A stretch of 64,000 nt of DNA. Origin: Arthrobacter pascens. GTDB taxonomy: Bacteria > Actinomycetota > Actinomycetes > Actinomycetales > Micrococcaceae. The notes beneath the pieces were generated by a model. The model saw nothing but the letters and a program-made list of their open reading frames with translations. It was not told where the DNA came from and ran no database searches. Below, one piece after another: positions 3,405 through 18,918 of this stretch. Position numbers and translations under genes: made by a program. The stretch is taken from contig NZ_JAFHKT010000151.1 of NCBI RefSeq assembly GCF_017052465.1, forward strand, positions 496,001 through 560,000, given 5' to 3'. Numbering within the stretch: the first letter of the stretch is position 1; each line of letters opens with the position of its first letter.

Positions 3405-4916
3405 CTATTTCCGGGCGGCCCAGGGGTCGGCGATGCCGATGTACTGGGTGGTGGTGTATTCGGCGATGCCTTCGGATCCGCCTTCGCGGCCGAGGCCTGA
3501 CTGTTTGACGCCTCCGAAGGGTGCTGCCGCGTTGGAGATGACGCCGGCGTTGAAGCCCACCATGCCGAATTCGATCTGTTCGGCCACGCGCAGGAGGCGG
3601 TTGAAGTCCCGGCTGTAGAGGTAGGACACCAGGCCGTATTCGCTGGCGTTGGCCAGCCGGACCGCGCCCTCCTCGGTGGCAAAGGTGGTCACGGGCGCCA
3701 CCGGGCCGAAAATTTCCTGGCGGAGGATCTCTGCGCCGTTCGGGACGTTCGCGAGCACGGTGGGGTGGTAGAAGTAACCGGCGCCTTCCACCGGTGAACC
3801 GCCGGTGACGGCGGTGGCGCCGGCGTCGACGGCGGCGCTCACCAGCGCGTGCACGTCGTCGCGGGCGCCGGCGTCGATCAGGGGTCCCACCTGGGTGCCG
3901 GGGTCGGTGCCGCGGCCGGTGATCAGGGCGCCCATGGCGGCGGCGAACTTTTCGGTGAATTCGGCGGCGACGGACTCCTGGACCAGGAAGCGGTTCGCGG
4001 CAGTGCAGGCCTCGCCCATGTTCCGCATCTTGGCGGCCATGGCGCCGTCGACGGCGGCATCCAGGTCGGCGTCCTCGAAGACGATGAACGGGGCGTTGCC
4101 GCCCAGTTCCATGGAGGTCCGCAGCACGTTCTGTGCGGCGTCGGCGATGAGGCGTTTGCCCACCGGGGTGGAGCCGGTGAAGGAGACCTTGCGCAGCCGC
4201 GGGTCCGCCAGCAGCGGGCCGGAAATGCCTGAGGCGCTGCTGGATGAGACGACGTTGAGCACGCCCGCGGGGAGTCCGGCGTCGAGCATGGTCTGGGCGA
4301 AGAGCTGGGCGGTCAGCGGGGTGAGTTTGGCGGGCTTGAGCACCATGGTGCAGCCGGCGGCGACGGCGGGGGCTACTTTGCGGGTGGCCATGGCGAGCGG
4401 GAAGTTCCATGGCGTGATGAGCAGGCACGGTCCCACGGGTTTGTGCTGGACGAGGATCTTGTTCTTGCCCTCGGGGGTGGTGAGGTAGCGGCCGTAGTCG
4501 CGGACGGTTTCCTCGGAGAACCAGCGCAGGAACTCGGCGCCATAGGTCACCTCGCCGCGGGCTTCGGCCAGCGGCTTGCCCATCTCCAGGGTCATCAGCA
4601 GCGCGAAGTCCTCGGCGCGTTCGGTCACGAGGTCGAAGGCGCGGCGCAGGATTTCGGCACGTTCCCGGGGCGCCGTCCGGGCCCAGGAGGCCTGGACCTT
4701 GTCCGCTGCGTCGAGCGCGGCGAGGGCGTCCTCGCTGGTGGCGGAGGCCAGCGTGGCGAGCACCTCCCCGGTGGCGGGGTCGTGGACGTCGAACGTGCCG
4801 CCGTCGGACGCGTCCCGCCACTGCCCGCCGATGAGCAGGCCGGTGGGGACGGAGGCGATCAGCGCGTCCTCGCGCTCAGCGGTGACGGCAGGGGAGATTA
4901 CGGGGGACGTGGTCAT
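3405..4916 (-). CDS. gabD: Succinate-semialdehyde dehydrogenase (NAD(P)+)
   Basis: 503 aa, normal aldehyde dehydrogenase length. ITPWNFP contains the oxyanion Asn171, MELGGN the general base Glu270, and GEACTAANRF the nucleophile Cys304. GAGGAG lies 8 nt before the ATG. It is the last gene of the hpa operon. HpaI releases succinate semialdehyde from homoprotocatechuate catabolism, so oxidation to succinate is the expected job, and the GabD-like sequence agrees. A less specific ALDH is possible. The 120-nt gap to hpaI is filled by tandem repeats, so it may be transcribed less than the upstream genes. Confidence 0.85.
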   Translation of the reverse strand: MTTSPVISPAVTAEREDALIASVPTGLLIGGQWRDASDGGTFDVHDPATGEVLATLASATSEDALAALDAADKVQASWARTAPRERAEILRRAFDLVTERAEDFALLMTLEMGKPLAEARGEVTYGAEFLRWFSEETVRDYGRYLTTPEGKNKILVQHKPVGPCLLITPWNFPLAMATRKVAPAVAAGCTMVLKPAKLTPLTAQLFAQTMLDAGLPAGVLNVVSSSSASGISGPLLADPRLRKVSFTGSTPVGKRLIADAAQNVLRTSMELGGNAPFIVFEDADLDAAVDGAMAAKMRNMGEACTAANRFLVQESVAAEFTEKFAAAMGALITGRGTDPGTQVGPLIDAGARDDVHALVSAAVDAGATAVTGGSPVEGAGYFYHPTVLANVPNGAEILRQEIFGPVAPVTTFATEEGAVRLANASEYGLVSYLYSRDFNRLLRVAEQIEFGMVGFNAGVISNAAAPFGGVKQSGLGREGGSEGIAEYTTTQYIGIADPWAARK

Positions 4917-4956: not shown

Positions 4957-5075
4957 GGTTTCGGCAGGCTCAACCCCCGGGGGCAGGTCAGTAACTGTCA
5001 GCGGTTTCGACAGACTCAACCCCCGGTGGGGGCAGGTCAGTAGCTGTCGGGGGTTTCGACGGGCTCAGCCACCGG
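4957..5075. repeat. Tandem GTTTCGACAGGCTCAACC-type repeats between gabD and hpaI
   Basis: Two imperfect units of about 46-49 bp (4957-5002 and 5003-5051) plus a partial third (5052-5075). Each begins GGTTTCGRCRGRCTCARCC, followed in the full units by CCCGG, GGGGGCAGGTCAGTA and CTGTC. The third unit and part of the second lie inside the hpaI 3' end and encode its last residues. This looks like a REP/MITE-like intergenic repeat. Confidence 0.75.
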
Positions 5076-5858
5076 GTCGTTGGCGATGTATGTGGACGCG
5101 AGGGCTTCGGAGGCCCGGGCAAGGATCGCGACGTCGGCGCCCACGAGCACAAACGAGGCGCCGCCGGCAAGGTACGCCCGTGCGGTGCCCTCGTTGAAGG
5201 CGTTGACGCCGGCAGGTTTGCCGGCCGTCTTCGCCGCGGTGAGGCAGTGTTCGACGGCGGCACGCACTTCGGGGTGTTCCTGCTGTCCCAGCAGGCCCAT
5301 GGACGCGGCGAGATCGGCGGGGCCCAGGAAGATGGCGTCCACTCCATCGACGGCGAGGATGTTCTCCACTGCGGCCACGGCCGCTTCGGATTCGATCTGC
5401 ACTGTCACGCTGACGGTTTCAGCTGCCCGGGCGAGGTAGTCCGGGATGCGGTTCCAGCGCGCGGCGCGGGCCAGTGAGGACCCGACGCCGCGGACGCCGT
5501 GGGGCGGATACCGCGTCGCGGCCACGGCGGCCTCGGCTTCCGCTGCGGAGTTGACCATGGGAACCAGCAGGTTCTGCACGCCAAGATCCAGGTACTGCTT
5601 GAACACCACGGTGTCGTTCACCGGAGGCCGGACCATGGCCTGGACGGGGTAGCCGTTGACGGCCTGGAGCTGGGCGAGGATGGATTCGAGCCCGTTGGGG
5701 CTGTGTTCGGCGTCGATCAGGAGCCAGTCCAAGCCTGCCCCGGCGCAGATTTCGGCCACGAGCGGGCTCCCGGAGCACACCCACATCCCGGCCAGTGGGC
5801 GGTCAGCGGCGGCGAGGGCCTCGCGGAAGGTGGCGTCAGGTTCTAGACGAAGCGGCAT
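5037..5858 (-). CDS. hpaI: 4-hydroxy-2-oxoheptane-1,7-dioate aldolase (HpcH/HpaI family)
   Basis: 273 aa. It is a class II metal-dependent aldolase that splits 4-hydroxy-2-oxoheptanedioate into pyruvate and succinate semialdehyde. Visible family motifs are LLIDAEHSPN (catalytic His), AMVRPP (pyruvate-binding Arg), VQIES (metal Glu) and LGPADLAASMG (metal Asp). The ATG at 5858 lies inside the end of hpaH (16-nt overlap), indicating coupling. The C terminus VAEPVETPDSY is encoded by an intergenic-type tandem repeat, so the original stop was probably lost and replaced. Confidence 0.92.
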   Translation of the reverse strand: MPLRLEPDATFREALAAADRPLAGMWVCSGSPLVAEICAGAGLDWLLIDAEHSPNGLESILAQLQAVNGYPVQAMVRPPVNDTVVFKQYLDLGVQNLLVPMVNSAAEAEAAVAATRYPPHGVRGVGSSLARAARWNRIPDYLARAAETVSVTVQIESEAAVAAVENILAVDGVDAIFLGPADLAASMGLLGQQEHPEVRAAVEHCLTAAKTAGKPAGVNAFNEGTARAYLAGGASFVLVGADVAILARASEALASTYIANDPVAEPVETPDSY

Positions 5859-6628
5859 GTCACAGCTCCCAGCGGTCCGTAGTCGGCGTGGACGGTGTCG
5901 CCCTTGTATACCCAGAGCGGCCGGGTGAAGGAGCCGGCCAGGATGATGTCGCCGGCCTTCATGCTGTCCCCGTGGGCGGCGATCTTGTTGGCCAGCCAGT
6001 GCACGCCGTTGGCAGGGTGGTCCAGGACGCCTGCGGCCACGCCGGTTTCCTCCACGGTCTGGTTCTTGTACAGGATGGCGGAGACCCAGCGGAGGTCGAC
6101 GGCGTCCGGCTTCACCGGGCGGCCGCCCACCACCATGGCGCCCATGGCGGCGTTGTCGGAGATGGTGTCCACGATGGTCCGGCCCTCCATCTCGATCCGC
6201 GAATCCAGGATCTCGAGCGCCGGAACCACGTAGTCGGTGGCGTTCAGGACATCGAAGATGGTGCAGCCGGGGCCCTTGAGACTGTCCTTGAGGACGAACG
6301 CCAGCTCCACCTCCACCCGCGGGTGCGTGTACTTGTCCCATTCCACGGAGCAGCCGGTGTCGAGGACCATGTCATCGAAGATGGCGCCGTAATCCGGTTC
6401 GGTGATGCCGGTGGCGGCCTGCATGGCCTTCGACGTGAGGCCGATCTTGCGCCCCACCAGGGTCCTGCCGGCGTCCTCGTTGCGGCGCCGCCACAACTGC
6501 TGCACCGCATAGGAATCCTCCACCGTCATGTCCGGATAGCGGGCAGTCAGGCGCGGGACGGGGGTGCGGCTGCGGCCGGCCTCCACCAGCTCGTCGGCAA
6601 TGGCCTCAATCGTCTTCGGGTCAAGCAT
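5843..6628 (-). CDS. hpaH: 2-oxo-hept-4-ene-1,7-dioate hydratase (HpaH)
   Basis: About 261 aa, of the 2-keto-4-pentenoate hydratase/FAH-like fold. Motifs are LVGRKIGLTS, PRVEVELAFVL (metal-binding Glu residues) and ILAGSFTRPL near the end. It adds water to 2-oxohept-4-ene-1,7-dioate, the step before HpaI. The ATG at 6628 is chosen because GAGGAG is 7 nt upstream; the longer frame begins only with TTG at 6643. It overlaps hpaI by 16 nt. Confidence 0.9.
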   Translation of the reverse strand: MLDPKTIEAIADELVEAGRSRTPVPRLTARYPDMTVEDSYAVQQLWRRRNEDAGRTLVGRKIGLTSKAMQAATGITEPDYGAIFDDMVLDTGCSVEWDKYTHPRVEVELAFVLKDSLKGPGCTIFDVLNATDYVVPALEILDSRIEMEGRTIVDTISDNAAMGAMVVGGRPVKPDAVDLRWVSAILYKNQTVEETGVAAGVLDHPANGVHWLANKIAAHGDSMKAGDIILAGSFTRPLWVYKGDTVHADYGPLGAVTCRFV

Positions 6629-6717
6629 TCGTACGCTCCTCAATGATGGGACGGGTCGGTTCGCGGGACAGGTGGCCGGGTCCGCACGTTCGGTGCGGGG
6701 CCGGCCGCGCTGCCACG

Positions 6718-7806
6718 CTAGACCTGTGCCCCGAGCTTGAAGCCGGTCTTTTCTCCGGCGGATCCGTCCTCTTCCTTGCGGGTGTAGGAGAAGCCGTCGG
6801 CGCCCACTGTCACGGCCATCTCGGATGCGTCGGTGCGCTCAATGACGGGTTGCGGGTTGCCGTCGAGGTCCAGGACCAGGGAAGCCTCGGTGTACCAGGA
6901 CGGGACCACGGGGTTGCCCCACCAGTCGCGGCGCTGGTTGTCGTGCACGTCCCAGGTCACGGTGGGGTTGTCCGGGTCGCCGGTGTAGTAGTCCTGGGTG
7001 TAGATCTCCACGCGGTGGCCGTCCGGGTCCAGGATGTAGAGGTAGAAGGCGTTGGACACGCCGTGCCGGCCGGGGCCGCGCTCGATCCGGTCCGAGATGC
7101 GCAGGGCGCCCATCTTGTCGCAGATCTGGATGATGTTGTGCTTCTCGTGGGTGGAGAACGCGATGTGGTGCAGGCGCGGGCCGTTGCCGCCGGTCAGGGC
7201 GGTGTCGTGCACGGTCTGCTTGCGGTGCATCCACGCGGCGTAGGTGACGCCGTCGGAGTCCTTGATGTCCTCGGAGACGCGGAAGCCGAGGTCCTCGAGG
7301 TACTTGCGGCCGCGGGGGACATCCGGGGTGACCTGGTTGAAGTGGTCCAGGCGGACCAGCTCACCTGCGGAGTAGAGGTCGTAACGCTGGGTGAGGCGTT
7401 CCACGTGCTCCACGTCGTAGAAGAATTCGTAGGGGAAGCCCAGCGGGTCCTCGACGCGGACCGAGTCGCCCACGCCCTTGGTGAAGCCGTCCTTGCGGCG
7501 TTCGGTGCGGCAGCCCAGTTCCTTGTAGTAGGCCTCGGCAGCATCCACTTCGGCCGGCGACTTCACGCGGTAGGCGAAGGCCGCGGCGGCGGCCACCGGG
7601 CCCTTGCGGAGCACCAGGTTGTGGTGGATGAACTCCTCGAAGGAGCGCAGGTAGATCGCGTTCTCGTCTTCCTCGGTGACGTGCAGGCCCAGCAGGTCCA
7701 CGTAGAACGCGCGGGACTTGGCGAGGTCAGTGACCACCAGTTCCAGGTACGCGCAGCGGACGATGTCCGGGGCAGGGACAGAGGGGGTGGGTACAAAGTT
7801 AGTCAT
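6718..7806 (-). CDS. hpaD: 3,4-dihydroxyphenylacetate (homoprotocatechuate) 2,3-dioxygenase
   Basis: 362 aa, an extradiol ring-cleavage dioxygenase of the vicinal-oxygen-chelate superfamily. The numbering fits the Brevibacterium/Arthrobacter HPCD/MndD enzymes: metal ligands His155 (LDHFNQV), His214 (RLHHIAF) and Glu267 (HRVEIYT), and second-sphere Asn157, Trp192, His200, Arg243, Tyr257 and Arg293 all fall on the expected residues. It opens homoprotocatechuate to 5-carboxymethyl-2-hydroxymuconate semialdehyde. The sequence alone does not say Fe or Mn, since both occur in this subfamily with identical ligands. It lies between hpaE and hpaH in the operon. Confidence 0.96.
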   Translation of the reverse strand: MTNFVPTPSVPAPDIVRCAYLELVVTDLAKSRAFYVDLLGLHVTEEDENAIYLRSFEEFIHHNLVLRKGPVAAAAAFAYRVKSPAEVDAAEAYYKELGCRTERRKDGFTKGVGDSVRVEDPLGFPYEFFYDVEHVERLTQRYDLYSAGELVRLDHFNQVTPDVPRGRKYLEDLGFRVSEDIKDSDGVTYAAWMHRKQTVHDTALTGGNGPRLHHIAFSTHEKHNIIQICDKMGALRISDRIERGPGRHGVSNAFYLYILDPDGHRVEIYTQDYYTGDPDNPTVTWDVHDNQRRDWWGNPVVPSWYTEASLVLDLDGNPQPVIERTDASEMAVTVGADGFSYTRKEEDGSAGEKTGFKLGAQV

Positions 7807-7855: not shown

Positions 7856-9370
7856 CTAGGCGCCGAATTTGGGGGTGTGGACTGAGCCGAGTGTGATGTG
7901 CACGGCCTGCTGGTCGGTGTAGAAATCGATGGAACGGTAGCCGCCCTCGTGGCCCAGGCCGGAGGCCTTGACGCCGCCGAACGGGGTGCGGAGGTCGCGG
8001 ACGTTGTGGCTGTTCAGCCACACCATGCCGGCCTCGACGTTCTGCGAGAAGTTGTGGGCCCGGGTCAGGTTCTGGGTCCAGATGTAGGCCGCCAAGCCGT
8101 ACTTGGTGTTGTTCGCCAAGGCGAGGGCTTCGTCGTCGTTCTCGAACGGCGTGATGGCGACGACCGGGCCGAAGATCTCCTCCTGGAAGATCCGCGCGTC
8201 CGGGGCGACGTCGGCAAACACGGTAGGGGCGATGTAGTTGCCTTCCGGGAGGTGCTCCGGCCGGCCGCCGCCGGCCAGCAGCCGGCCCTCGGACTTGCCG
8301 ATCTCCACGTAGGAGGCCACCTTTTCGTAGTGCTCGGGGTGGACCAGGGCACCCACCTGGGTCTTGGGATCGTGCGGATCGCCGACGACGATGTTCTTCG
8401 CGCGGGCCGCGTACTTCTCACAGAACTCGTCGTAGATGGGGCGTTCCACGAGGATCCGGGAACCTGCGGTGCAGCGCTCGCCGTTGAGCGAGAAGACGCC
8501 GAACAGGGCGGAGTCGATCGCGGCGTCCAGGTCTGCGTCGGCGAACACCACGCACGGCGACTTGCCGCCGAGCTCCATGGACAGGCCCTTGAGGTTGGCG
8601 GCGGCGTTGCGGAAGATCGTCTGGCCCGTGGTGGTCTCGCCGGTGAAGGAGATCAGCGGCACGTCCGGGTGCTTGACCAGGGCGTCGCCGGCCTCCTCGC
8701 CGAGGCCGTTGACCAGGTTGAAGACGCCGTCCGGCAGGCCCGCGTCCTTGAAGATCTGTGCCCACAGCGAGGCCGAGAGCGGGGTGAACTCGGCCGGTTT
8801 GAGGACCACGGTGTTGCCGGTGGCCAGGGCCGGGGCGAGCTTCCAGGACTCCAGCATGAACGGGGTGTTCCACGGCGTGATCAGGCCGGCGACGCCGATC
8901 GGCTTGCGGTTCACGTAGTTGATCTGCGAGCCGGGGACCTTCATGGCGTCGTCGAACTGGGCCACGATCAGGTCCGCGAAGAAGCGGAAGTTCTCCGCCG
9001 CACGCAGGGCCTGGCCCTTCGCCTGGGTGATGGGCAGGCCGGTGTCGAAGGTTTCCAGCTCGGCGAGCCGTTCTTCCTGGGCTTCGACGGCGTCGGCGAT
9101 CTTGTTCAGGACACGGGCACGTTCGCGCGGCTTCATCTTCGGCCACGGACCGTTGGTGAACGCTTCGCGGGCGGCGGCGACGGCGAGGTCGATGTCCTCT
9201 TTCTGCCCGGCGGCCGCAGTGGCGTAGTTGGTGTTGGAGACCGGATCCAGGACATCGAAAGTCTTGCCGCCCACGGAGTCGACGAATTCGCCGTTGATGT
9301 AGTGCTGGATATGGGAGGGCAGGTTCTCGGGGATGTAGTGCGTCTTGGTTGCTTCGGCAGTGAACGTCAT
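7856..9370 (-). CDS. hpaE: 5-carboxymethyl-2-hydroxymuconate semialdehyde dehydrogenase
   Basis: 504 aa aldehyde dehydrogenase. Asn168 lies in ITPWNTP, Glu266 in MELGGK and Cys300 in LNGERCTAGSRI. The LNGERCTAGSR active-site loop and the N terminus (HYINGEFVDS) are typical of HpaE. It oxidises the HpaD ring-cleavage product to 5-carboxymethyl-2-hydroxymuconate. AAGGAAG precedes the ATG. It sits 49 nt upstream of hpaD and 11 nt after the gntR gene. Confidence 0.93.
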   Translation of the reverse strand: MTFTAEATKTHYIPENLPSHIQHYINGEFVDSVGGKTFDVLDPVSNTNYATAAAGQKEDIDLAVAAAREAFTNGPWPKMKPRERARVLNKIADAVEAQEERLAELETFDTGLPITQAKGQALRAAENFRFFADLIVAQFDDAMKVPGSQINYVNRKPIGVAGLITPWNTPFMLESWKLAPALATGNTVVLKPAEFTPLSASLWAQIFKDAGLPDGVFNLVNGLGEEAGDALVKHPDVPLISFTGETTTGQTIFRNAAANLKGLSMELGGKSPCVVFADADLDAAIDSALFGVFSLNGERCTAGSRILVERPIYDEFCEKYAARAKNIVVGDPHDPKTQVGALVHPEHYEKVASYVEIGKSEGRLLAGGGRPEHLPEGNYIAPTVFADVAPDARIFQEEIFGPVVAITPFENDDEALALANNTKYGLAAYIWTQNLTRAHNFSQNVEAGMVWLNSHNVRDLRTPFGGVKASGLGHEGGYRSIDFYTDQQAVHITLGSVHTPKFGA

Positions 9371-9381
9371 CGTTTTCTTCC

Positions 9382-10101
9382 TTACTGCTGTGGGGTCTGT
9401 TGGTCGGTTGCGGCGGCCAGGTAGGCGTCCAGGGTGGCGCTGCGGTGGAGCCGTGCTGCTTTTTCGATGGTGTCGGCGTCGGCGCCGGTTTCAATGAGCC
9501 TGAGGAGGGCTTCGTGTTCGTCCACAGATTGGTGCGCCCGGCCGGGGACGAAGCGGAACGTGGAAGAGCGCAGGGACGCCAGCCGGTTCCAGCCCCGGTG
9601 GACCAGGTCCAGGATGTGCGGGTTGGGGCAGTGCTCGAACAGGACGCTGTGGAAGTCCTGGTTCAGCCGGGTGAAGCGGACAGGATCGAAGTGCTGCAGG
9701 CACTCGCGCATGTCCTCGTTCACCGCACGGGCGCGGGCGATGTCCGCTTCGCCGATCAGCGGTGCGGACAGCGCGGTGGCTGCGCCCTCGACGATGCTCA
9801 GGGTCTGCATCGTGTACAGGTACTCTGTGGGGTCGATGCCGGACACCGTGGCGCCGACGTTCCGCTCGAACTTCACCAGGCCCTCTGCCTCGAGCCGGCG
9901 GATTGCTTCGCGGACCGGGACCACGCTGACGCCCAGGTCCTCGGCGATCTTGGCCAGCACCAGCCGGTAGCCGGGGGAGTAGGTCCCGTCAACGATCCGG
10001 CCCTTTACGGCTGTGTAGGCCTGCTCCGATTTGCTGCCGGCAGTCTTGCTGGCGGTGCTGGTGGCAGCCGCCCTGCCCGCGGCTGTGACAGTCTCAGTCA
10101 T
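9382..10101 (-). CDS. GntR family regulator (FadR/FCD type) of the hpa operon
   Basis: 239 aa. After a disordered Ala/Thr/Ser-rich N terminus, residues ~25-95 form the winged helix with the GntR signature VSVVPVREAIRRLEAEGLV. The C-terminal part is an all-helical FCD ligand-binding domain (SIVEGAA, LNQDFHSVLFE, VDEHEALLRLI). The ATG at 10101 overlaps the preceding stop (ATGA), so the regulator is made from within the operon it probably controls. A GTATAC-centred palindrome of the kind FCD regulators bind lies at the operon promoter (11617-11626). The likely inducer is an aryl acetate or ring-cleavage intermediate; this is inferred. Confidence 0.9.
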   Translation of the reverse strand: MTETVTAAGRAAATSTASKTAGSKSEQAYTAVKGRIVDGTYSPGYRLVLAKIAEDLGVSVVPVREAIRRLEAEGLVKFERNVGATVSGIDPTEYLYTMQTLSIVEGAATALSAPLIGEADIARARAVNEDMRECLQHFDPVRFTRLNQDFHSVLFEHCPNPHILDLVHRGWNRLASLRSSTFRFVPGRAHQSVDEHEALLRLIETGADADTIEKAARLHRSATLDAYLAAATDQQTPQQ

Positions 10102-11591
10102 TGGCCTTGCCTGCTTCCCATGGCTTGCCATTCCAAGTACCTGGTGCGCCACTCGGCGTTCAGCGGGTAGAGCCCGTCCACGCTGTGGCCCTGCTGCACC
10201 ATTTCGGCGATGAAGACTTCCTCGCGCTCCTGGGCGATCGAATCCTCGGCAAGTTCCTCGGCCAGTGCCGGCGGGATCACCAGGATGCCGTCCGAGTCCG
10301 CCACGATGATGTCCCCCGGCTGAACGGTGGTGCCGCCGCAGGCGATGGTGATGTCCGTGTCCCACGGGATGTGCCGGCGCCCCAGCACCGCGGGGTGCGG
10401 GTTGGAATAGTACGTGGGCATGTCCATGGCGGCCACGGCCGCGAAGTCGCGGACCCCGCCGTCGGTGATGATGGCTGCGGCGCCGCGGACCTGGGCACGC
10501 AGGGCCAGGATGTCGCCGATGGTGCCGGTGCCCTTTTCGCCGCGGGCCTCCATCACCAGGATCTCGCCCTCGTTGACGGAATCGATGGCCTTCTTCTGGG
10601 CGTTGAAGCCGCCGCCGTGGGCCTTGAAGAGGTCCTCGCGGTTGGGCACGTAGCGCAGGGTCCGGGCCAGGCCCACGATCCGCTTCTCCGGCCGGGTGGA
10701 AGTCAGGCCGTCGATGCTGACGTTGTTCAGGCCGCGCTTGCGCAGCTGGGAGGACAGGGTTGCTGTGCAGACGCTTTCCAGCTTCGCCTTCAGCTCCGGG
10801 GTCAGGACGGGCCCGACGGCAGCGGCCTCCACAGCGGCGAGCCCCGCCGCTTCGCGCGAACCGTAGGCTTCCTCCCGTTGCAGGTCATCGGTCTTGGGCC
10901 GGGCGCCAAAGTCGCCGAACGGCGTCGTACCTTCCGTCACCTTGGTGGCGAGGCGGCCGGTGCTGAAGTCACCGGCCGTGACCTCAACCTCGACGACGTC
11001 GCCCGGCTTGGCGACGGAGGCGCCGGCCGGTGTGCCGGTCAGGACGATGTCCCCCTCTTCGAGGGTGAGCAGCTGGGACAGGTCGGCGACGAGCCGGGCG
11101 AACGGGAAAAGCAGGTCTTCGGTGGTGTCGTCCTGGACCAGTTCGCCATTGTGCCAGGTGCGGATGCGAAGCGTTGCGGGGTCCACCGTGTCGGCCGGGA
11201 TCAGTCCGGGGCCGACGGGGGTGAACCCGTCGCCGCCCTTGGACCGGAGGTTGGAGCCCTTGTCCGCGTAACGGAGGTCGTAAACGCCGAGGTCGTTGCT
11301 GGCCGTGACCCACTCGACGTGGCTCCAGGCGTCCTCGAGGCCGACCCGCCGGGCAGGTTTGCCGATGATCAGGGCGATTTCGCCTTCATAGCCGAGCAGT
11401 TCGCAGCCGGCTGGCCGCTCCACGGTTGACGGGGCCTCTGCCGAACCGAGCGCCAGGGATGACGACGGCTTCAGGAAGTAGGAGGGCTGCTCCGGCGTGC
11501 GGCCCCGCTGGGCCGCCCGACTGGGGTAGTTGATATGCACCGCGATGACCTTGCGGGCCGCGGCCAGGAGGTGGTCGGTGACCTGTTCCAA
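10098..11591 (-). CDS. Fusion of FAH-family HpaG-like isomerase/decarboxylase with RraA/HMG-aldolase-like domain
   Basis: 497 aa with two enzyme domains. Residues ~1-225 are a fumarylacetoacetate-hydrolase fold: GYEGEIALIIGK (Glu69, Glu71), ASND (Asp100), RSKGGDGF (Lys118) and VLTGTPAG. Residues ~260-495 are RraA-like (HMG/CHA aldolase, oxaloacetate decarboxylase relatives) with the GGVRD signature at 378-382. The start is TTG at 11591, supported by GAGGAG 6 nt upstream. It is the first gene of the hpa operon. HpaG normally isomerises and decarboxylates the HpaE product. No separate hpaF or second hpaG copy is present. The RraA half may supply the decarboxylase step; this is inference. Confidence 0.88.
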   Translation of the reverse strand: MEQVTDHLLAAARKVIAVHINYPSRAAQRGRTPEQPSYFLKPSSSLALGSAEAPSTVERPAGCELLGYEGEIALIIGKPARRVGLEDAWSHVEWVTASNDLGVYDLRYADKGSNLRSKGGDGFTPVGPGLIPADTVDPATLRIRTWHNGELVQDDTTEDLLFPFARLVADLSQLLTLEEGDIVLTGTPAGASVAKPGDVVEVEVTAGDFSTGRLATKVTEGTTPFGDFGARPKTDDLQREEAYGSREAAGLAAVEAAAVGPVLTPELKAKLESVCTATLSSQLRKRGLNNVSIDGLTSTRPEKRIVGLARTLRYVPNREDLFKAHGGGFNAQKKAIDSVNEGEILVMEARGEKGTGTIGDILALRAQVRGAAAIITDGGVRDFAAVAAMDMPTYYSNPHPAVLGRRHIPWDTDITIACGGTTVQPGDIIVADSDGILVIPPALAEELAEDSIAQEREEVFIAEMVQQGHSVDGLYPLNAEWRTRYLEWQAMGSRQGQ

Positions 11592-11825: not shown

Positions 11826-13739
11826 GTGCAGTTCCACCACCACGGTTACGTATCCGGTGACCCGCGAGTCCAGCCGGCCGCCGGCGTCGGCATCGACCGG
11901 CCCGCGCAGCTTCCCGACGAAGTGGATGTCCTCATTGTGGGCACCGGGCCGGCGGGCATGCTGACGGCCGCGCAGCTGTCCCAGTTCCCCGGCGTCACCA
12001 CCCGGATCGTGGAGCGCCGCCCCGGAAGGCTCGCCATCGGCCAGGCCGACGGCATCCAGGCGCGGAGTGTCGAGACGTTCCAGGCTTTCGGCTTCGCCGA
12101 GCGGATCATCGCCGAGGCCTACCGCATCACCGAGATGGCATTCTGGAAGCCGGACCCCGCGGATCACTCCCGCATCGTCCGCGCCGCCCGCGCCGTCGAC
12201 GACCCCGCCGGCATCAGCGAATTCCCGCACCTCATCGTCAACCAGGCCCGCGTGCTGGATTACTTCGCCGAGTTCATGGCGAACTCGCCCGCCCGGATGT
12301 CACCTGACTACGGCTTTGAATTCCGCAGCCTCGAGGTCACCGGGGAGCGGGAGTTCCCCGTCACCGTGACGCTGCTCCACACGGCGGGCCCCGACGAAGG
12401 CCGGGAACGCACCGTCCGGGCCAAGTACGTCGTCGGTGCGGACGGCGCCCGGAGCAAGGTGCGCGATGCCATCGGCTGCACGCTCGCCGGCGACCAGGCC
12501 AACCATGCCTGGGGCGTCATGGATGTCCTTGCTTCCACCGACTTCCCGGACATCCGCCTGAAATGCGCGATCCAGTCCGGGCAAGGCGGCAGCATCCTGC
12601 TGATCCCGCGCGAAGGCGGCCACCTCTTCCGCATGTACGTCGACCTCGGCGAGGTCGCCGCGGACGACCACGGGGCCGTCCGCAAGACCACCATCGAACA
12701 GATCATTGCCAAGGCCAACGCGATCCTCCACCCCTACACGCTCGACGTGCGCAACGTCGCCTGGCACAGTGTGTACGAGGTGGGCCACCGGCTCACCGAC
12801 CGGTTCGACGACGTCCTTCCGGACGAGCTCGGCACGCGCACGCCGCGCGTGTTCATCACCGGCGACGCCTGCCACACGCACAGCGCCAAGGCCGGGCAGG
12901 GCATGAACGTCTCCATGCAGGACGGCTTCAACCTGGGCTGGAAGCTGGGCCACGTGCTCGAGGGCCGCAGCCCGGAGAGCCTGCTCTCCACCTACTCGGC
13001 CGAGCGCCAGGTCGTCGCGAAGAACCTCATCGACTTCGACAAAGAGTGGTCCACGCTCATGGCGAAGAAGCCCGAGGAATTCGACAGCCCCTCGGAACTC
13101 GAGGACTTCTACGTCAGCACGGCCGAATTCCCGGCAGGCTTCATGACCCAGTACGCCCCGTCCATGCTCATTGGCGAGCCGGCGCATCAGGACCTGGCCT
13201 CCGGGTTCACCATCGGCAAGCGCTTCAAGTCCGCTCCGGTCGTGCGGGTCTGCGACACCAACCCGTTGCACCTGGGCCACCAGGCGAAGGCGGACGGCCG
13301 GTGGCGCATCTACGTGTTCGCGGACGCGGCAGCGCCCGCCCTGGGAAACAATAGCGCCACATCGCCGGCCACGGACTTCGCCGAGTGGCTGGCGAACGCG
13401 CCGGATTCGCCGCTGGCCGCTACGCCGTCGGCCGCCGACCGCGACGCCTGGTTCGACGTGAAGGTCATCTACCAGCAGGACCACACGGGCATCGACATCG
13501 GCACGGTCCCGGCAGTGTTCAAACCGGAAGTCGGCCCGTTCAAGCTCACCTACCTGGAGAACGTCTACGGCACCGATCCAGCGGCGGACATCTTCGAACT
13601 GCGCGGCATCGACCGCGGCGGTGCCGTCGTCGTCGTGCGGCCGGACCAGTACGTCGCGAACGTCCTGCCCCTGACGGCGACGGCCGAGCTCGCCGCATTC
13701 TTCGCGCCCCTCCTGCCGGACCGGCTTCGGACCGCTTAA
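11826..13739 (+). CDS. FAD-dependent aromatic hydroxylase (3-hydroxybenzoate 4-monooxygenase/MobA-like)
   Basis: 637 aa, the size of phenol hydroxylase-type flavoproteins with a thioredoxin-like C-terminal domain. The FAD motif is VDVLIVGTGPAGMLTAAQL (~33-51), the DG motif is YVVGADGARSKVRD, and the GD motif is RVFITGDACHTHSAKAGQG. ELRGIDRGGAVVVVRPDQYV near the end is the C-terminal domain. The MQFH start, EFPHLIVNQARV and overall pattern match MobA of Comamonas as I remember it. The start is GTG, with GAGGAAAG upstream. Beside the hpa operon, a role in hydroxylating a hydroxyphenylacetate to homoprotocatechuate is plausible; 3-hydroxybenzoate is the other candidate. Confidence 0.85.
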   Translation: MQFHHHGYVSGDPRVQPAAGVGIDRPAQLPDEVDVLIVGTGPAGMLTAAQLSQFPGVTTRIVERRPGRLAIGQADGIQARSVETFQAFGFAERIIAEAYRITEMAFWKPDPADHSRIVRAARAVDDPAGISEFPHLIVNQARVLDYFAEFMANSPARMSPDYGFEFRSLEVTGEREFPVTVTLLHTAGPDEGRERTVRAKYVVGADGARSKVRDAIGCTLAGDQANHAWGVMDVLASTDFPDIRLKCAIQSGQGGSILLIPREGGHLFRMYVDLGEVAADDHGAVRKTTIEQIIAKANAILHPYTLDVRNVAWHSVYEVGHRLTDRFDDVLPDELGTRTPRVFITGDACHTHSAKAGQGMNVSMQDGFNLGWKLGHVLEGRSPESLLSTYSAERQVVAKNLIDFDKEWSTLMAKKPEEFDSPSELEDFYVSTAEFPAGFMTQYAPSMLIGEPAHQDLASGFTIGKRFKSAPVVRVCDTNPLHLGHQAKADGRWRIYVFADAAAPALGNNSATSPATDFAEWLANAPDSPLAATPSAADRDAWFDVKVIYQQDHTGIDIGTVPAVFKPEVGPFKLTYLENVYGTDPAADIFELRGIDRGGAVVVVRPDQYVANVLPLTATAELAAFFAPLLPDRLRTA

Positions 13740-15260: not shown

Positions 15261-16316
15261 CTACTTGTAGACGCGGACCCAATCGACCTGCATCTGCGAG
15301 GGGGCAGCGGCAGTGCCGTTGGGGAACCAGTCCAGCTGCAGCGTCTGCTGCATGGCGCCGGAGGGCTGGTGCGCCGGGTTCGTGTCGGTGAAGGTCTTCA
15401 CACCGTCGACGTAGCCGGTGATGCCGGCGGGAGTCCATTCGACCGCGTAGTTGTGCCACTGCGTGGTGTCAACGGCGTAGCTGGACTGCGTCTGGAAGCT
15501 CGAGCCGCTGCACTCGTAGTGCAGGAAGAACTTGATCTTGGAGGTCTTGCCGGAACCTTCGGCGTAGTCGATCTCATCGCAGGTGGCGGACGGCTTGGTG
15601 GGCCAGAGGATCAGCACCGGGTGGTACTGCGGGTCCCGCGCATTGGTCTTCATGCGGGTTTCCCAGCGTCCGTACTTCTGCCGTGCGAACTTTGCGGACA
15701 TGCCGCCGGTGGTGCCGGCCGCGTCACCCTTTACTGTGGCTACGCCGTTGGCCACAGACCAGGCGTCAGGGCTGCGTTTGCCTTTACCGGCGTGGCCCGG
15801 TCCGCTGTAGACGCCCCACTTGGTGGAGTCGGGAGCACCGGTGTTGGAGAACTCGTCACCGGCAACGACGGAGCCCCAGCCGAGCGTGGTCGCCGCTTGC
15901 TTGCCGCTGACGGGAGTGGGCGCAGCTGCGATGTTGGCTGCGGGCACGGCCTTGGCCTGCGGGGCCACAGGGGCCTTTGCCGGTGCGGGCACGGCCTTGG
16001 CCTGCGGGGCCACGGCGGCCGGGGCAACTGCCGGCTTCGGTGCGCTTGCTGCCGACAATTGCGGCTTCACGGCGGGCTTGGTGGTTGCCTTGGCGGCGGC
16101 AGCCTTCGTGGTTGCCTTCGGTGCCGGCGCGGCCGGTGTGGCGGCCTTCGGCGCGGGGGCGGCTGCCGTGCCCGTGGCGGCCGGTGCAGCCTGGGCGGAC
16201 AGTCCCTTGTCCGCGGTGTCAGGGGCCGATGCGCCGACCCCTGTGGGGGCGAGGCTGCATCCGGTCAGGGACAGCGCGCCAACGGTAAGTACTGTGGCTA
16301 GTTTCTTGTTGAACAA
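15261..16316 (-). CDS. Secreted GH16-family glycan hydrolase, lipoprotein
   Basis: About 351 aa. TTG at 16316 gives a clean lipoprotein signal (KKLATVLTVGALSLTGC) with the Cys for lipidation; GGAGGGG lies 5 nt upstream. Residues ~25-150 are a low-complexity Ala/Pro/Lys linker with a repeated APQAKAVPAPAK-like unit, probably wall-spanning. The C-terminal ~200 residues are a GH16 jelly roll with the catalytic motif EIDYAE (nucleophile, helper and acid/base), GRWETRMKT before it and QLDWFPNG/MQVDWVRVYK at the end. Such enzymes cut beta-glucans or related polymers; the substrate is not clear. It stands alone with a long leader. Confidence 0.85.
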   Translation of the reverse strand: MFNKKLATVLTVGALSLTGCSLAPTGVGASAPDTADKGLSAQAAPAATGTAAAPAPKAATPAAPAPKATTKAAAAKATTKPAVKPQLSAASAPKPAVAPAAVAPQAKAVPAPAKAPVAPQAKAVPAANIAAAPTPVSGKQAATTLGWGSVVAGDEFSNTGAPDSTKWGVYSGPGHAGKGKRSPDAWSVANGVATVKGDAAGTTGGMSAKFARQKYGRWETRMKTNARDPQYHPVLILWPTKPSATCDEIDYAEGSGKTSKIKFFLHYECSGSSFQTQSSYAVDTTQWHNYAVEWTPAGITGYVDGVKTFTDTNPAHQPSGAMQQTLQLDWFPNGTAAAPSQMQVDWVRVYK

Positions 16317-16519
16317 AAAAACCCCTCCGGGGCGTAGACAGGCGCACGCGGCAGACACATCGAGGTGCTGACGCATGCCTGAAGATTTGGTTCAGTCCCC
16401 CCGAGGGGACCCGAGCAGCCTCGTGCTGCTCGTCGCATCCGGCCCCAACGATCGGGCGTCCGGTGCCCGATTTTCGGGCCAGGCCTGAGGCCAGTCAGCA
16501 ACGTTACTAACTCGTTATA
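16317..16519 (-). ncRNA. Long structured 5' leader of the GH16 gene (possible cis-regulatory RNA)
   Basis: A -10-like TATAAC (16519-16514, minus) precedes ~190 nt of non-coding leader. Read 5'-3' on the minus strand it folds into several perfect hairpins: CCCGA-AAA-TCGGG, GGGC-N7-GCCC, AGCAGC-N5-GCTGCT and GTCCCC-TCGG-GGGGAC. The leader ends CCCCGGAGGGG followed by seven T, which puts the Shine-Dalgarno in a small hairpin before a U tract. c-di-AMP riboswitches often precede wall hydrolases in actinobacteria, but I cannot match the conserved core, so the class is open. Confidence 0.4.
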
Positions 16520-16743: not shown

Positions 16744-18153
16744 TTAGCCGTTAATGACCTGCGGGACGCCAAGCGCTTTGAGGCCTTCGACGCCGAACTC
16801 CAGGCCGTAGCCGGACTGCTTGGCGCCGCCGAAGGGGACTCGGGGGTCCACGGCACCGTGTTTGTTGATCCAGACGGTACCGGCCTGGATGCGGGCGGCG
16901 ACAGTGCGGGCTTCGGGGAGGTTGGCGGACCAGACGGAGGCGCCGAGTCCGACGTCGAGCGCGTTGGCCTTGGCCACTGCCTCATCCACGGTGCTGTAGC
17001 GGATGATCGGCAGGGCCGGGCCGAACTGTTCCTCGGCGACCAGCGGGTTGTCGTTGTCGATGTCGGCCACGAGCGTGGCGGGGTAGAAGTGGCCGGGCTG
17101 GTCCGGGTCGGGGTTGCCGCCGATCAGGATGCGGGCGCCGGAGTCACGGGCTGCTTCGACGAGCCCGGCCACGATGTCGTACTGGGCCCTGTTCTGCAGC
17201 GGGCCCAGGACGTTGTTCTCGTCGAGGCCCACGCCCATGGGCATGGCCTTCGCCACGGCCGTGAGCTCTTCGCAGACGGCGTCGTAAATGTCGTCATGGA
17301 CGTAGAGGCGCTTGAGCGCGGCGCAGGTTTGGCCGGTGTTGATGAAGGCGCCCCAGAAGAGGTCCTGGGCGATGGCCTGGGGGTCGGCGTCGGGCAGGAC
17401 GATGCCGGCGTCGTTGCCGCCGAGTTCGAGGGTGAGGCGTTTGACGGTGTTGGCGGAGGATTTGATGATCTCCCGGCCGGCGTCGGTGGAGCCGGTGAAC
17501 ATGACTTTGCCGATCGCGGGGTGTTCGGCGAGGCGGGCGCCGACCTTGCGGTCTCCGGAGACGACGGTGAGCAGGCCCTCGGGGAGTTCTTCGTTGAGGA
17601 CCTTGGCCAGGGCCAGGACGGAGAGCGGGGTCATCTTGGAGGGTTTGACCACGACGGCGTTGCCCATCCTCAGGGCCGGGGCGATCTGCCAGATGGTGAT
17701 CATCATGGGCCAGTTCCAGGGGCCGATGGCGCCGACGACGCCGATGGGGCGGTAGTGCAGTTCGGCGTAGGTTTCGCCGTCGTCCACGACGGTTTCCGGT
17801 TCCAGGGGCGTGGTGGCGGCGGCGCGGAGCCAGGCGGCGCAGGCGCCGACTTCGAAGCGGGCGTTGGGTCCGTTGAGGGGTTTGCCCTGCTCGCGGGAGA
17901 GCAGCCGGGCGAGTTCTTCTGCGGAGCGTTCGACGGCGTCGGCTGCTTTGAGCAGCGCGGCGGACCGGGCGTCGTGGCCCAGGGCCGCCCAGGCCGGCTG
18001 TGCCGCCTGCGCGGCGGCGACCGCTTTTTCGAGGTCGTCAAGGGTGTGGACGGGTGCTTCGCCGACGGCGGTGCCGGTGGCGGGGTCCAGGATGGTCCGG
18101 GTTTCGCCGGCGTCCGGGGTGATCGAGGCCAGCAGGGCGTCGTAAGTTTCCAA
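16744..18153 (-). CDS. Aldehyde dehydrogenase, probably of an amine-degradation pathway
   Basis: About 469 aa. IGPWNWP holds the oxyanion Asn, LELGGND the base Glu and NTGQTCAALKRL the nucleophile Cys; PFGGAKQSGYGLEFG is at the C terminus. TTG at 18153 has GGAG 6 nt upstream and is preferred to the GTG at 18192. The gene lies next to a TetR regulator and divergent from a cupin, flavin amine oxidase and permease, so it likely oxidises the aldehyde made by the amine oxidase. The aldehyde (for example 4-aminobutanal) is not determined. Confidence 0.85.
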   Translation of the reverse strand: METYDALLASITPDAGETRTILDPATGTAVGEAPVHTLDDLEKAVAAAQAAQPAWAALGHDARSAALLKAADAVERSAEELARLLSREQGKPLNGPNARFEVGACAAWLRAAATTPLEPETVVDDGETYAELHYRPIGVVGAIGPWNWPMMITIWQIAPALRMGNAVVVKPSKMTPLSVLALAKVLNEELPEGLLTVVSGDRKVGARLAEHPAIGKVMFTGSTDAGREIIKSSANTVKRLTLELGGNDAGIVLPDADPQAIAQDLFWGAFINTGQTCAALKRLYVHDDIYDAVCEELTAVAKAMPMGVGLDENNVLGPLQNRAQYDIVAGLVEAARDSGARILIGGNPDPDQPGHFYPATLVADIDNDNPLVAEEQFGPALPIIRYSTVDEAVAKANALDVGLGASVWSANLPEARTVAARIQAGTVWINKHGAVDPRVPFGGAKQSGYGLEFGVEGLKALGVPQVING

Positions 18154-18324
18154 GGGATACTCCACTTCGAGTAGGCGATGCGCACCGGCCACCGTGGCCT
18201 GAGGCTATGTCTCGAGTCTGCCCGGCCCGACGCGGTGCGTCTTGTGTATCCGCGAACGGCTCTTGACCCCAAGCGAACAGCTGCCCCAGGGGAGCTGCCG
18301 CGGGGCGGCTGTCTGTGCCGGCGC

Positions 18325-18918
18325 CTAGGCCTGCCCGCCGGCTCCGGTCCGCAGCAGCAGAACGCCGTGAACTTCCTCAAGCGACGCCGCGATGAGGGCA
18401 CGGTCCACTCCCGCGAGGTACTGCAGAACCAGGCCGTCCAGGGATGCAAACAGCGTCCGGGCCACCACCTGCACGTTATCGGTCAGCCCGGCCGCCGCCA
18501 GGCCTCCGGCCAGCGCGCTGACGTAGTTCTCGTAGAGGGCGGAAACCGCGTCCGCGAGCTCGGGCCGGCGGCGCGCCTCCAAAATCATTTCGTACTGGAA
18601 GACCTGCAGTTCCGGTTCGGCCAGCAGCAACTCGAGCAGTGACTCCGTGAAGGAATGGCCCAGGCCCGCGGCTTCACGGAGCCTGGACGCACTGATGGAC
18701 TGCTCGGCAGCCCAGTCCAAAGCCGCCGCGATGAGGGCATCGCGTGAGCCGAAGTGGTGCGCCACCAGCGTGTTGTTCACGCCTGCGGCTTCAGCGACTG
18801 AGCGGTAAGTGAGGCCACGCAGGCCCTTTGCGGCCACAACGGCGACGGCGGCGCGGAGCAGTGCTTCCTTTCCGGTCCCGTATTTCGACAGCGGGGCGGG
18901 AGCGTCGGATGACTTCAT
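18325..18918 (-). CDS. TetR family regulator of the cupin/amine oxidase cluster
   Basis: 197 aa. The N-terminal HTH spans ~15-65 (GLTYRSVAEAAGVNNTLVAHHFGSRDAL split around the recognition helix), and the C-terminal two thirds is the helical ligand/dimer domain (QYEMILEARRRPELADAV). A 7-2-7 palindrome sits 52 nt upstream in the divergent region (18971-18986) and is the likely operator for both directions. The ligand may be the amine or aldehyde handled by the neighbouring genes. Confidence 0.85.
   Translation of the reverse strand: MKSSDAPAPLSKYGTGKEALLRAAVAVVAAKGLRGLTYRSVAEAAGVNNTLVAHHFGSRDALIAAALDWAAEQSISASRLREAAGLGHSFTESLLELLLAEPELQVFQYEMILEARRRPELADAVSALYENYVSALAGGLAAAGLTDNVQVVARTLFASLDGLVLQYLAGVDRALIAASLEEVHGVLLLRTGAGGQA

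What the first reader, a model, noticed from the sequence alone, without database searches (positions are those of the whole stretch)
10098..11591. FAH-RraA fusion enzyme at the head of the hpa operon, with no hpaF
One 497-aa protein joins an HpaG-like FAH domain (EGE, ND and SKGGDGF motifs) to an RraA/HMG-aldolase-like domain with GGVRD at 378-382. The operon has hpaD, E, H, I and gabD but neither the isomerase hpaF nor a second HpaG domain. RraA relatives decarboxylate oxaloacetate, so the RraA half could do the decarboxylation and the FAH half the isomerisation. Motifs and gene set are seen; the split of labour is inference.
Basis: partly seen in the sequence, partly recalled or inferred. 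Interest (0 to 1): 0.75.

Follow-up and report, generated by a model that had tools for sequence, protein, structure and literature searches.

The report
FAH-RraA fusion enzyme in homoprotocatechuate operon
In Arthrobacter-type bacteria one two-part enzyme appears to do the middle steps of breaking down a tyrosine-derived aromatic acid, steps that other bacteria do with separate isomerase and decarboxylase proteins; which part does which step is not yet tested.

Summary
On the minus strand, 10098-11591 encodes a 497-aa fusion of a FAH domain (14-215) and an RraA-like domain (276-438), first gene of fusion-gntR-hpaE-hpaD-hpaH-hpaI-gabD, with no hpaF or second HpaG domain. NCBIfam already lists it (NF009399/PRK12764) without a function. 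In 394 genomes of the class, fusion and HpaE pass their cut-offs in the same 31; HpaF (PF02962) is found in 1 of those 31, unlinked. An HpaF profile finds 0 of 114 fusion loci but 13 of 16 hpa operons from other phyla, where RraA-like genes are absent (0 of 16). Downstream genes vary (hpaH+hpaI, or one DHDPS-family aldolase), so the fusion most likely carries CHM to OHED, the HpaF plus HpaG steps. Both catalytic sites are conserved. More likely FAH decarboxylates and RraA isomerises. No activity has been measured. A real, lineage-wide, functionally unproven variant of a known pathway.

The parts
10098..11591 (-). FAH-RraA fusion gene, 497 aa, TTG start
   Evidence: NF009399/PRK12764 891.8 bits over cut-off 444
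10947..11552 (-). FAH domain (residues 14-215); metal triad E69, E71, D100 and K118
   Evidence: PF01557 162.4 bits; residues
10278..10766 (-). RraA / class II aldolase-like domain (residues 276-438); D360-X20-R381-D382
   Evidence: PF03737 109.2 bits; NF006093 241.5 bits; residues; fold like 5x15 and 3noj
9382..10365 (-). GntR/FCD regulator; longest ORF given, real start probably near 10098
   Evidence: PF00392, PF07729; found beside most fusions
7856..9370 (-). hpaE, CHMS dehydrogenase
   Evidence: TIGR02299 668.7 bits over cut-off
6718..7806 (-). hpaD, homoprotocatechuate 2,3-dioxygenase
   Evidence: TIGR02295 446.1 bits over cut-off
5843..6643 (-). hpaH, OHED hydratase
   Evidence: TIGR02312 375.9 bits over cut-off
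5037..5831 (-). hpaI-like aldolase (ORF runs from 6341; match starts at residue 171)
   Evidence: PF03328; TIGR02311 310.6 bits, under cut-off
3405..4916 (-). gabD-like succinate-semialdehyde dehydrogenase
   Evidence: PF00171; TIGR01780 549.8 bits, under cut-off
11826..13739 (+). divergent PheA/TfdB-type FAD monooxygenase, candidate 4-HPA hydroxylase (inference)
   Evidence: PF01494, PF07976; NF006144 1063.7 bits
13768..15165 (+). MFS transporter, probable uptake (inference)
   Evidence: PF00083; TIGR00883 395.1 bits, under cut-off 443

Best explanation
The fusion is a replacement for HpaF plus HpaG in these actinobacterial operons. It takes the HpaE product (CHM) to 2-oxohept-3-ene-1,7-dioate (OHED), which HpaH+HpaI, or a DHDPS-family aldolase in sister operons, then hydrates and cleaves. 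Most likely split (inference): the FAH half, with the metal triad E69/E71/D100 and K118, decarboxylates OPET as the HpaG C-terminal half is thought to do. The RraA half binds the same 2-oxo/enol acid head at its D360-X20-R381-D382 metal site and moves protons along it, doing CHM to OPET and/or HHDD to OHED, the jobs of HpaF and the HpaG N-half. Shown: gene content, linkage, no detectable HpaF, conserved sites, predicted folds. Inferred: every reaction and the split.
For: Fusion and HpaE over cut-off in the same 31 of 394 genomes. HpaF (PF02962) in 1 of these 31, an unlinked 40-bit hit in G208; 17 of 31 have neither PF02962 nor PF01361. HpaF profile: 0 of 114 fusion loci; 7 of 8 reference operons, those seven having built it. 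Among 16 operons of other phyla HpaF is in 13 (six of them not in the profile) and an RraA-like gene in 0. Thirteen of those 16 (all but E. coli, Azotobacter, Pseudomonas) hold one FAH in the cluster (one of them a second FAH about 5 kb further on), so there FAH presumably decarboxylates without RraA. FAH half matches the 1GTT C-half at 118.6 bits and the N-half at 52.9; it keeps E/E/D/K as HpaG-C does, while the three HpaG-N-like rows lack both glutamates. D360, R381, D382 in 112 of 112 fusion rows, E69/E71 in 111 (L067 is cut). Downstream modules vary while fusion and hpaE stay together; five genomes with no hpaH/hpaI nearby have an adjacent pair elsewhere. RraA-fold HMG/CHA aldolase exchanges pyruvate methyl protons (PMC5065237, passages). 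Arthrobacter Rue61a grows on 4-HPA and homoprotocatechuate (PMC3534580, passages; whether it has the fusion was not checked).
Against: No activity is known for either half. The profile preference TIGR02303 over TIGR02305 is not specific: four other FAH proteins of this genome show it too. Three Deinococcus operons have one FAH, no HpaF and no RraA in the stretch (PF02962 also silent on their plasmid records, but no control rang in that call, 102), so the HpaF step may be spontaneous or supplied elsewhere; CHM is reported to isomerise by itself (PMC12718150). The N=isomerase, C=decarboxylase assignment of HpcE was itself not validated experimentally. The fusion is under the cut-offs of TIGR02303, TIGR02305 and of the aldolase families. 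A 2010 genome paper places hpaF elsewhere in C. aurimucosum, as cauri_0890 (PMC2830990), not testable here. The homoprotocatechuate cluster described for Rhodococcus ruber lists a 4-oxalocrotonate tautomerase (PMC6498646, passages), so clusters of other make-up are annotated in Actinobacteria. This genome itself has one unlinked PF01361 protein.
Confidence: 0.52

Rival explanations
1. One reading: the RraA half decarboxylates OPET and the FAH half does the isomerisation(s).
For: RraA-fold HMG/CHA aldolase decarboxylates oxaloacetate (PMC5065237); FlDet, an RraA-like protein, is a dehydratase/decarboxylase of a 2-oxo acid (PMC8563752); D-X20-R-D intact in 112 of 112 rows.
Against: The FAH half keeps the metal site of the decarboxylase half of HpaG, not the glutamate-free site of the isomerase half; RraA-less operons presumably decarboxylate without it; FAH relatives also decarboxylate oxaloacetate (recalled).
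Confidence: 0.2
2. The FAH half does all the chemistry that needs an enzyme; CHM isomerises by itself and the RraA half is a scaffold or accessory domain, as the HpaG N-half may be.
For: CHM isomerises spontaneously and OPETD needs HHDDI as partner for high activity (PMC12718150); Deinococcus operons with one FAH and no HpaF or RraA in the stretch; a related R. erythropolis BG43 fusion keeps the FAH site but has lost the D-X20-R-D stretch.
Against: The RraA site D360/R381/D382 is invariant in 112 of 112 rows, unlikely for a mere scaffold.
Confidence: 0.16
3. Bypass: the FAH half hydrates the tricarboxylate and the RraA half, as a class II aldolase, cleaves it to pyruvate and formylsuccinate, which loses CO2 to give succinic semialdehyde.
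For: RraA-fold CHA aldolase cleaves a tricarboxylic 4-hydroxy-2-oxo acid (PMC5065237); FAH-like folds include hydratases (one search lists HpcG and MhpD); some fusion operons lack hpaH and hpaI nearby.
Against: Where neither hpaH/hpaI nor the DHDPS gene is linked, five of five uncut loci have the pair elsewhere in the genome; other loci carry a DHDPS-family gene whose best model is 'HpaI-NOT-DapA', under cut-off. A bypass would need neither.
Confidence: 0.05
4. Another FAH protein or tautomerase elsewhere supplies CHM isomerase, and the RraA half does something unrelated such as oxaloacetate decarboxylation.
For: The genome has other FAH proteins and one unlinked PF01361 protein; cauri_0890 was called hpaF in C. 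aurimucosum.
Against: PF01361 has no match in 17 of 31 fusion genomes; fusion and HpaE occur in the same 31 genomes.
Confidence: 0.07

Closest known systems
NF009399 / PRK12764 'fumarylacetoacetate hydrolase family protein' (NCBIfam)
   Same: The same full-length two-domain protein, 891.8 bits over cut-off 444.
   Different: Only a general name; no reaction or pathway is stated in the model line.
HpaG/HpcE of E. coli (1GTT), bifunctional isomerase/decarboxylase
   Same: Two-domain enzyme beside hpaE/hpaD; the FAH half resembles its C-half and keeps its metal ligands.
   Different: The second domain is RraA-like instead of a second FAH; HpaF is missing from the operon.
HpaF, CHM isomerase (PF02962, 4-OT superfamily)
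   Same: The pathway step that has no other owner in the fusion operons.
   Different: No sequence match; different fold class (recalled).
HMG/CHA aldolase LigK type (3NOJ) and RraA-like NF006093/PRK08245
   Same: RraA half has the fold (3noj Z 21.6, 202 aligned, 2.7 A; 5x15 Z 25.9, 197 aligned, 2.0 A) and D-X20-R-D; it passes the NF006093 cut-off.
   Different: Under the aldolase cut-offs (TIGR02798 77.8 of 304.5; NF006731 84 of 179); fused to FAH; an aldolase is already supplied by HpaI or a DHDPS-family protein.
hpaGLEDHI-gabD2 cluster of Corynebacterium aurimucosum (PMC2830990, passages)
   Same: Gene letters fit this operon, with amine oxidase and padA beside it.
   Different: Described in 2010 as plain HpaG with hpaF elsewhere; no fusion is mentioned in the passages I read, and I did not see its sequence.
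FlDet, RraA-like KDGR dehydratase/decarboxylase (PMC8563752, passages)
   Same: Precedent for a catabolic RraA-like enzyme other than an aldolase.
   Different: Alginate/sugar-acid pathway; about 27 kDa protein, not fused.

Membership tests
NF009399/PRK12764 | full-length match over curated cut-off | tested here: met
   891.8 bits against 444, residues 2-490
HpaG bifunctional isomerase/decarboxylase | two FAH domains | tested here: not met
   one FAH, one RraA-like
HpaG bifunctional isomerase/decarboxylase | TIGR02303 (C-half) cut-off | tested here: not met
   140.9 of 276.4 bits; four other FAH proteins of the genome score 117-182
HpaG bifunctional isomerase/decarboxylase | C-half metal triad E/E/D and K | tested here: met
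   E69, E71, D100, K118 as in Ec_HpaG_C
HpaG bifunctional isomerase/decarboxylase | OPET decarboxylase and HHDD isomerase activity | not testable with these tools
   needs enzyme assay
HpaG N-half (HHDD isomerase) | TIGR02305 cut-off and site without the two glutamates | tested here: not met
   87.4 of 228.65 bits; both glutamates present
HpaF / CHMI | PF02962 or HpaF-profile match in gene or operon | tested here: not met
HMG/CHA aldolase | D-X20-R-D metal/pyruvate motif (motif name recalled) | tested here: met
   D360, R381, D382 in 112 of 112 rows; same spacing in the 3NOJ alignment
HMG/CHA aldolase | family cut-off (TIGR02798, NF006731) | tested here: not met
   77.8 of 304.5; 84 of 179
HMG/CHA aldolase | aldol cleavage of HMG or CHA | not testable with these tools
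   needs enzyme assay
RraA RNase E regulator | TIGR01935 / NF006875 cut-off | tested here: not met
   48.3 of 123.8; 49 of 136
RraA-like NF006093/PRK08245 | curated cut-off | tested here: met
   241.5 of 208 bits over residues 263-491

The most novel reading that the evidence does not exclude
The RraA half is a true CHM (and perhaps HHDD) isomerase: an RraA-fold metalloenzyme that has replaced the 4-OT-type isomerase HpaF in this actinobacterial homoprotocatechuate pathway, fused to its decarboxylase so that the unstable tri-acid is handed over within one protein.
Probability: 0.38. Interest if true: 0.65.

Novelty: new variant of a known kind. Interest (0 to 1): 0.5.

Why it matters
The known homoprotocatechuate pathway runs through HpaF and HpaG, but in these Arthrobacter-type operons neither is found in its usual form. 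The fusion could fill both gaps with one protein. It would also make the open question of which HpaG half decarboxylates directly testable, because here the two halves have different folds and different metal sites. And it would support a catabolic role for RraA-like proteins that are often annotated as RNase regulators.

Tried and rejected
Rejected: a DNA or frame artefact (one open frame, conserved in 112 rows); a hidden hpaF in the operon (profile search of six frames in 114 fusion loci; best non-reference row E = 0.2); split FAH plus RraA gene pairs as forerunners (six stand-alone RraA neighbourhoods L068-L073 and four stand-alone FAH ones L074-L076, L213: no partner by tblastn at E<=1e-6; only part of the stand-alone hits were looked at); RraA neighbours on four plasmids as a clue to function: mixed neighbourhoods, nothing learned; HpaE-like genes under cut-off in eight regions L214-L221: none has the fusion, and those with recognisable neighbours (six of eight) look like catechol-type meta operons (that name is inference).

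The profile argument TIGR02303 > TIGR02305 was dropped as evidence after the control. The FAH tree puts fusion halves with Slun_FAH and the R. erythropolis fusion (99/99) but does not resolve kinship with the HpaG halves (deep fork open), so it is not used for the split. The structure model (pLDDT 86, pTM 0.50) shows two folded domains but not their arrangement. The 50 rows shown by Foldseek were all FAH-type.

They overlap the 31 class loci (L132 is the G002 contig by its length), so the 112 rows are not independent; the 31 class loci come from 30 genomes besides the window's (G208 twice). The class genomes are a sample of 394. Ten of 80 named loci show neither hpaH/hpaI nor the DHDPS gene; five of these are cut by contig ends (L134, L141, L143, L158, L161) and the other five were followed genome-wide. 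Two named loci show hpaH only (L139, cut; L151). Several loci are short, so 'absent' there means absent from the DNA fetched. Part of the output was cut.

Literature: no paper on the fusion was found with hpaG+RraA (0 papers) or FAH+RraA+fusion (0 papers), nor seen in the listings (20 of 32 listed; 17; 9; 13; 12; 12 of 93; 10 of 24). Only open-licence PMC is held. Read: PMC12718150 (abstract, sections 2 part 1, 7, 8, 10); passages only of PMC3534580, PMC7356986, PMC2830990, PMC6498646, PMC5065237, PMC8563752, PMC2991359.

Full report
What is there. The stretch 10098-11591 is coding on the minus strand: 497 aa from a TTG with a ribosome-binding site. Residues 14-215 are a FAH domain and 276-438 an RraA-like domain. 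The fusion is a known NCBIfam entry, NF009399/PRK12764, 891.8 bits. It is the first gene of a unit that goes on with a GntR/FCD regulator, hpaE, hpaD, hpaH, an hpaI-like gene and a gabD-like gene. A PheA/TfdB-type FAD monooxygenase and an MFS transporter are divergent from it.

Is anything missing? PF02962 (HpaF) has no match in the whole genome at E<=10. Across 394 genomes of the class, the fusion passes its cut-off in 31 and HpaE passes its cut-off in 31; I compared the lists by eye and they are the same 31 genomes. PF02962 matches 27 of the 394 but only one of the 31, G208, with a 40-bit unlinked hit. PF01361 tautomerases are in 14 of the 31, this genome included, so 17 of 31 have neither. 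A profile from seven HpaF proteins finds none in 114 fusion-bearing loci (window, 111 fetched loci, two plasmids) and finds 7 of the 8 reference operons, the seven that built it. In a wider set of 16 non-actinobacterial hpa operons, HpaF is in 13, six of them not used to build the profile; the three without are Deinococcus. PF02962 was also silent on those three plasmid records, but no control rang in that call and other replicons were not searched. None of the 16 stretches has an RraA-like gene.

Operon variety. In the 31 fetched class loci, 22 carry hpaH and hpaI and 9 carry instead a DHDPS-family gene; in the 80 named loci (Arthrobacter, Pseudarthrobacter, Paenarthrobacter, Amycolatopsis, Cryobacterium, Leifsonia and others) the numbers are 46 with both, 2 with hpaH only, 22 with the DHDPS-family gene, 10 with none in reach. 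The DHDPS gene lies between the fusion and hpaE, after gntR where that is there, in the loci I looked at (part of that output was cut). Six of six tested hit PF00701, and three of three score 325-337 bits to TIGR02313 'HpaI-NOT-DapA', under its cut-off 396.7. The five loci with nothing in reach that were not cut by a contig end all have an adjacent hpaH-hpaI pair elsewhere, hpaI under its cut-off. Of seven DHDPS-type genomes in the same calls, five have no HpaH at E<=1e-20, one (L192) has an hpaH-hpaI pair, one (L164) only weaker matches; of the eight in the class sample (G019, G183, G208, G233, G291, G330, G336, G368), five have none at E<=1e-30. So the downstream end is exchangeable and the fusion with hpaE is not: its product is most simply OHED. 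Members of the genus live on these compounds: Arthrobacter Rue61a grows on 4-HPA and homoprotocatechuate (PMC3534580, passages), and A. arilaitensis uses tyrosine (PMC2991359, passages); I did not check these two strains for the fusion.

Which half does what. The FAH half matches the C-half of E. coli HpcE better than the N-half (118.6 against 52.9 bits) and shares its E/E/D/K site, while the HpaG-N-like proteins of E. coli, Azotobacter and P. aeruginosa lack both glutamates. In HpcE the C-half is assigned as decarboxylase and the N-half as isomerase, though without experimental proof (PMC12718150); in A. baumannii both proteins together, helped by CHMI, give the best decarboxylation. In alphaproteobacterial and Deinococcus operons one metal-bearing FAH in the cluster presumably does the decarboxylation, with no RraA. 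By subtraction the RraA half is more likely to stand for HpaF or HpaG-N than for the decarboxylase. Chemistry allows it: RraA-fold HMG/CHA aldolase exchanges the methyl protons of pyruvate (PMC5065237).

Controls that cut against my reading. Four other FAH proteins of this genome also prefer the HpaG-C profile, so profile scores do not show OPET decarboxylase. The Deinococcus operons without HpaF show that its absence alone proves little. CHM can isomerise by itself. The 2010 report that C. aurimucosum has hpaF elsewhere could not be checked, and the homoprotocatechuate cluster described for R. ruber lists a 4-oxalocrotonate tautomerase.

Both sites look alive. E69 and E71 are present in 111 of 112 rows (the exception is cut by a contig end), D100, K118, D360, R381, D382 in 112 of 112; rows overlap in part. 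The predicted structure has both domains well folded, with FAH nearest 2dfu (Z 28.2, 209 aligned, 2.0 A) and RraA nearest 5x15 (Z 25.9, 197 aligned, 2.0 A), with 3noj, the HMG/CHA aldolase, at Z 21.6 (202 aligned, 2.7 A).

Verdict. Observation confirmed; pathway role likely (about 0.8 for CHM to OHED as a whole, a judgement); split of labour open, with FAH as decarboxylase and RraA as isomerase ahead of the reverse. It is a lineage-wide, already catalogued but functionally unexplained variant of HpaG/HpaF.

Noticed in passing
11826-13739 (+): PheA/TfdB-type FAD monooxygenase found near many fusion operons; PF03241 HpaB has no match in 25 of 31 fusion genomes (this genome has one, unlinked), so this may be the 4-HPA hydroxylase of the group.
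   Followed up: partly
L200 7983-9194 (Rhodococcus erythropolis BG43 pRLCBG43): A related FAH-RraA fusion of 403 aa in another aromatic cluster; its RraA half has lost the D-X20-R-D stretch in the alignment while the FAH metal residues are there.
   Followed up: partly
L213, L074, L075, L076: Compact cluster aldehyde dehydrogenase - dioxygenase - FAH in Streptomyces and others; its FAH (about 42% identical) is, of the rows compared, the closest stand-alone relative of the fusion's FAH half.
   Followed up: partly
L202, L230, L231 and L206, L232, L237: Deinococcus hpa plasmids come in two kinds: FAH + hpaF without hpaH/hpaI annotated nearby, and FAH + hpaH + hpaI without hpaF.
   Followed up: partly
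L044, L051, L053, L062-L065, L164 and others: Fusion operons in which one DHDPS-family gene takes the place of hpaH and hpaI; it may be a combined hydratase-aldolase.
   Followed up: partly
L198 (pTC2) and L199 (Rhodococcus plasmid): The fusion operon sits on plasmids within about 10 kb of amine oxidase genes (and of a phenylacetaldehyde dehydrogenase on pTC2), suggesting tyramine catabolism.
   Followed up: no
15261-16376 (-), 16744-18192 (-), 18325-18918 (-): GH16-type glucanase-like gene, an aldehyde dehydrogenase and a TetR regulator beyond the transporter.
   Followed up: no
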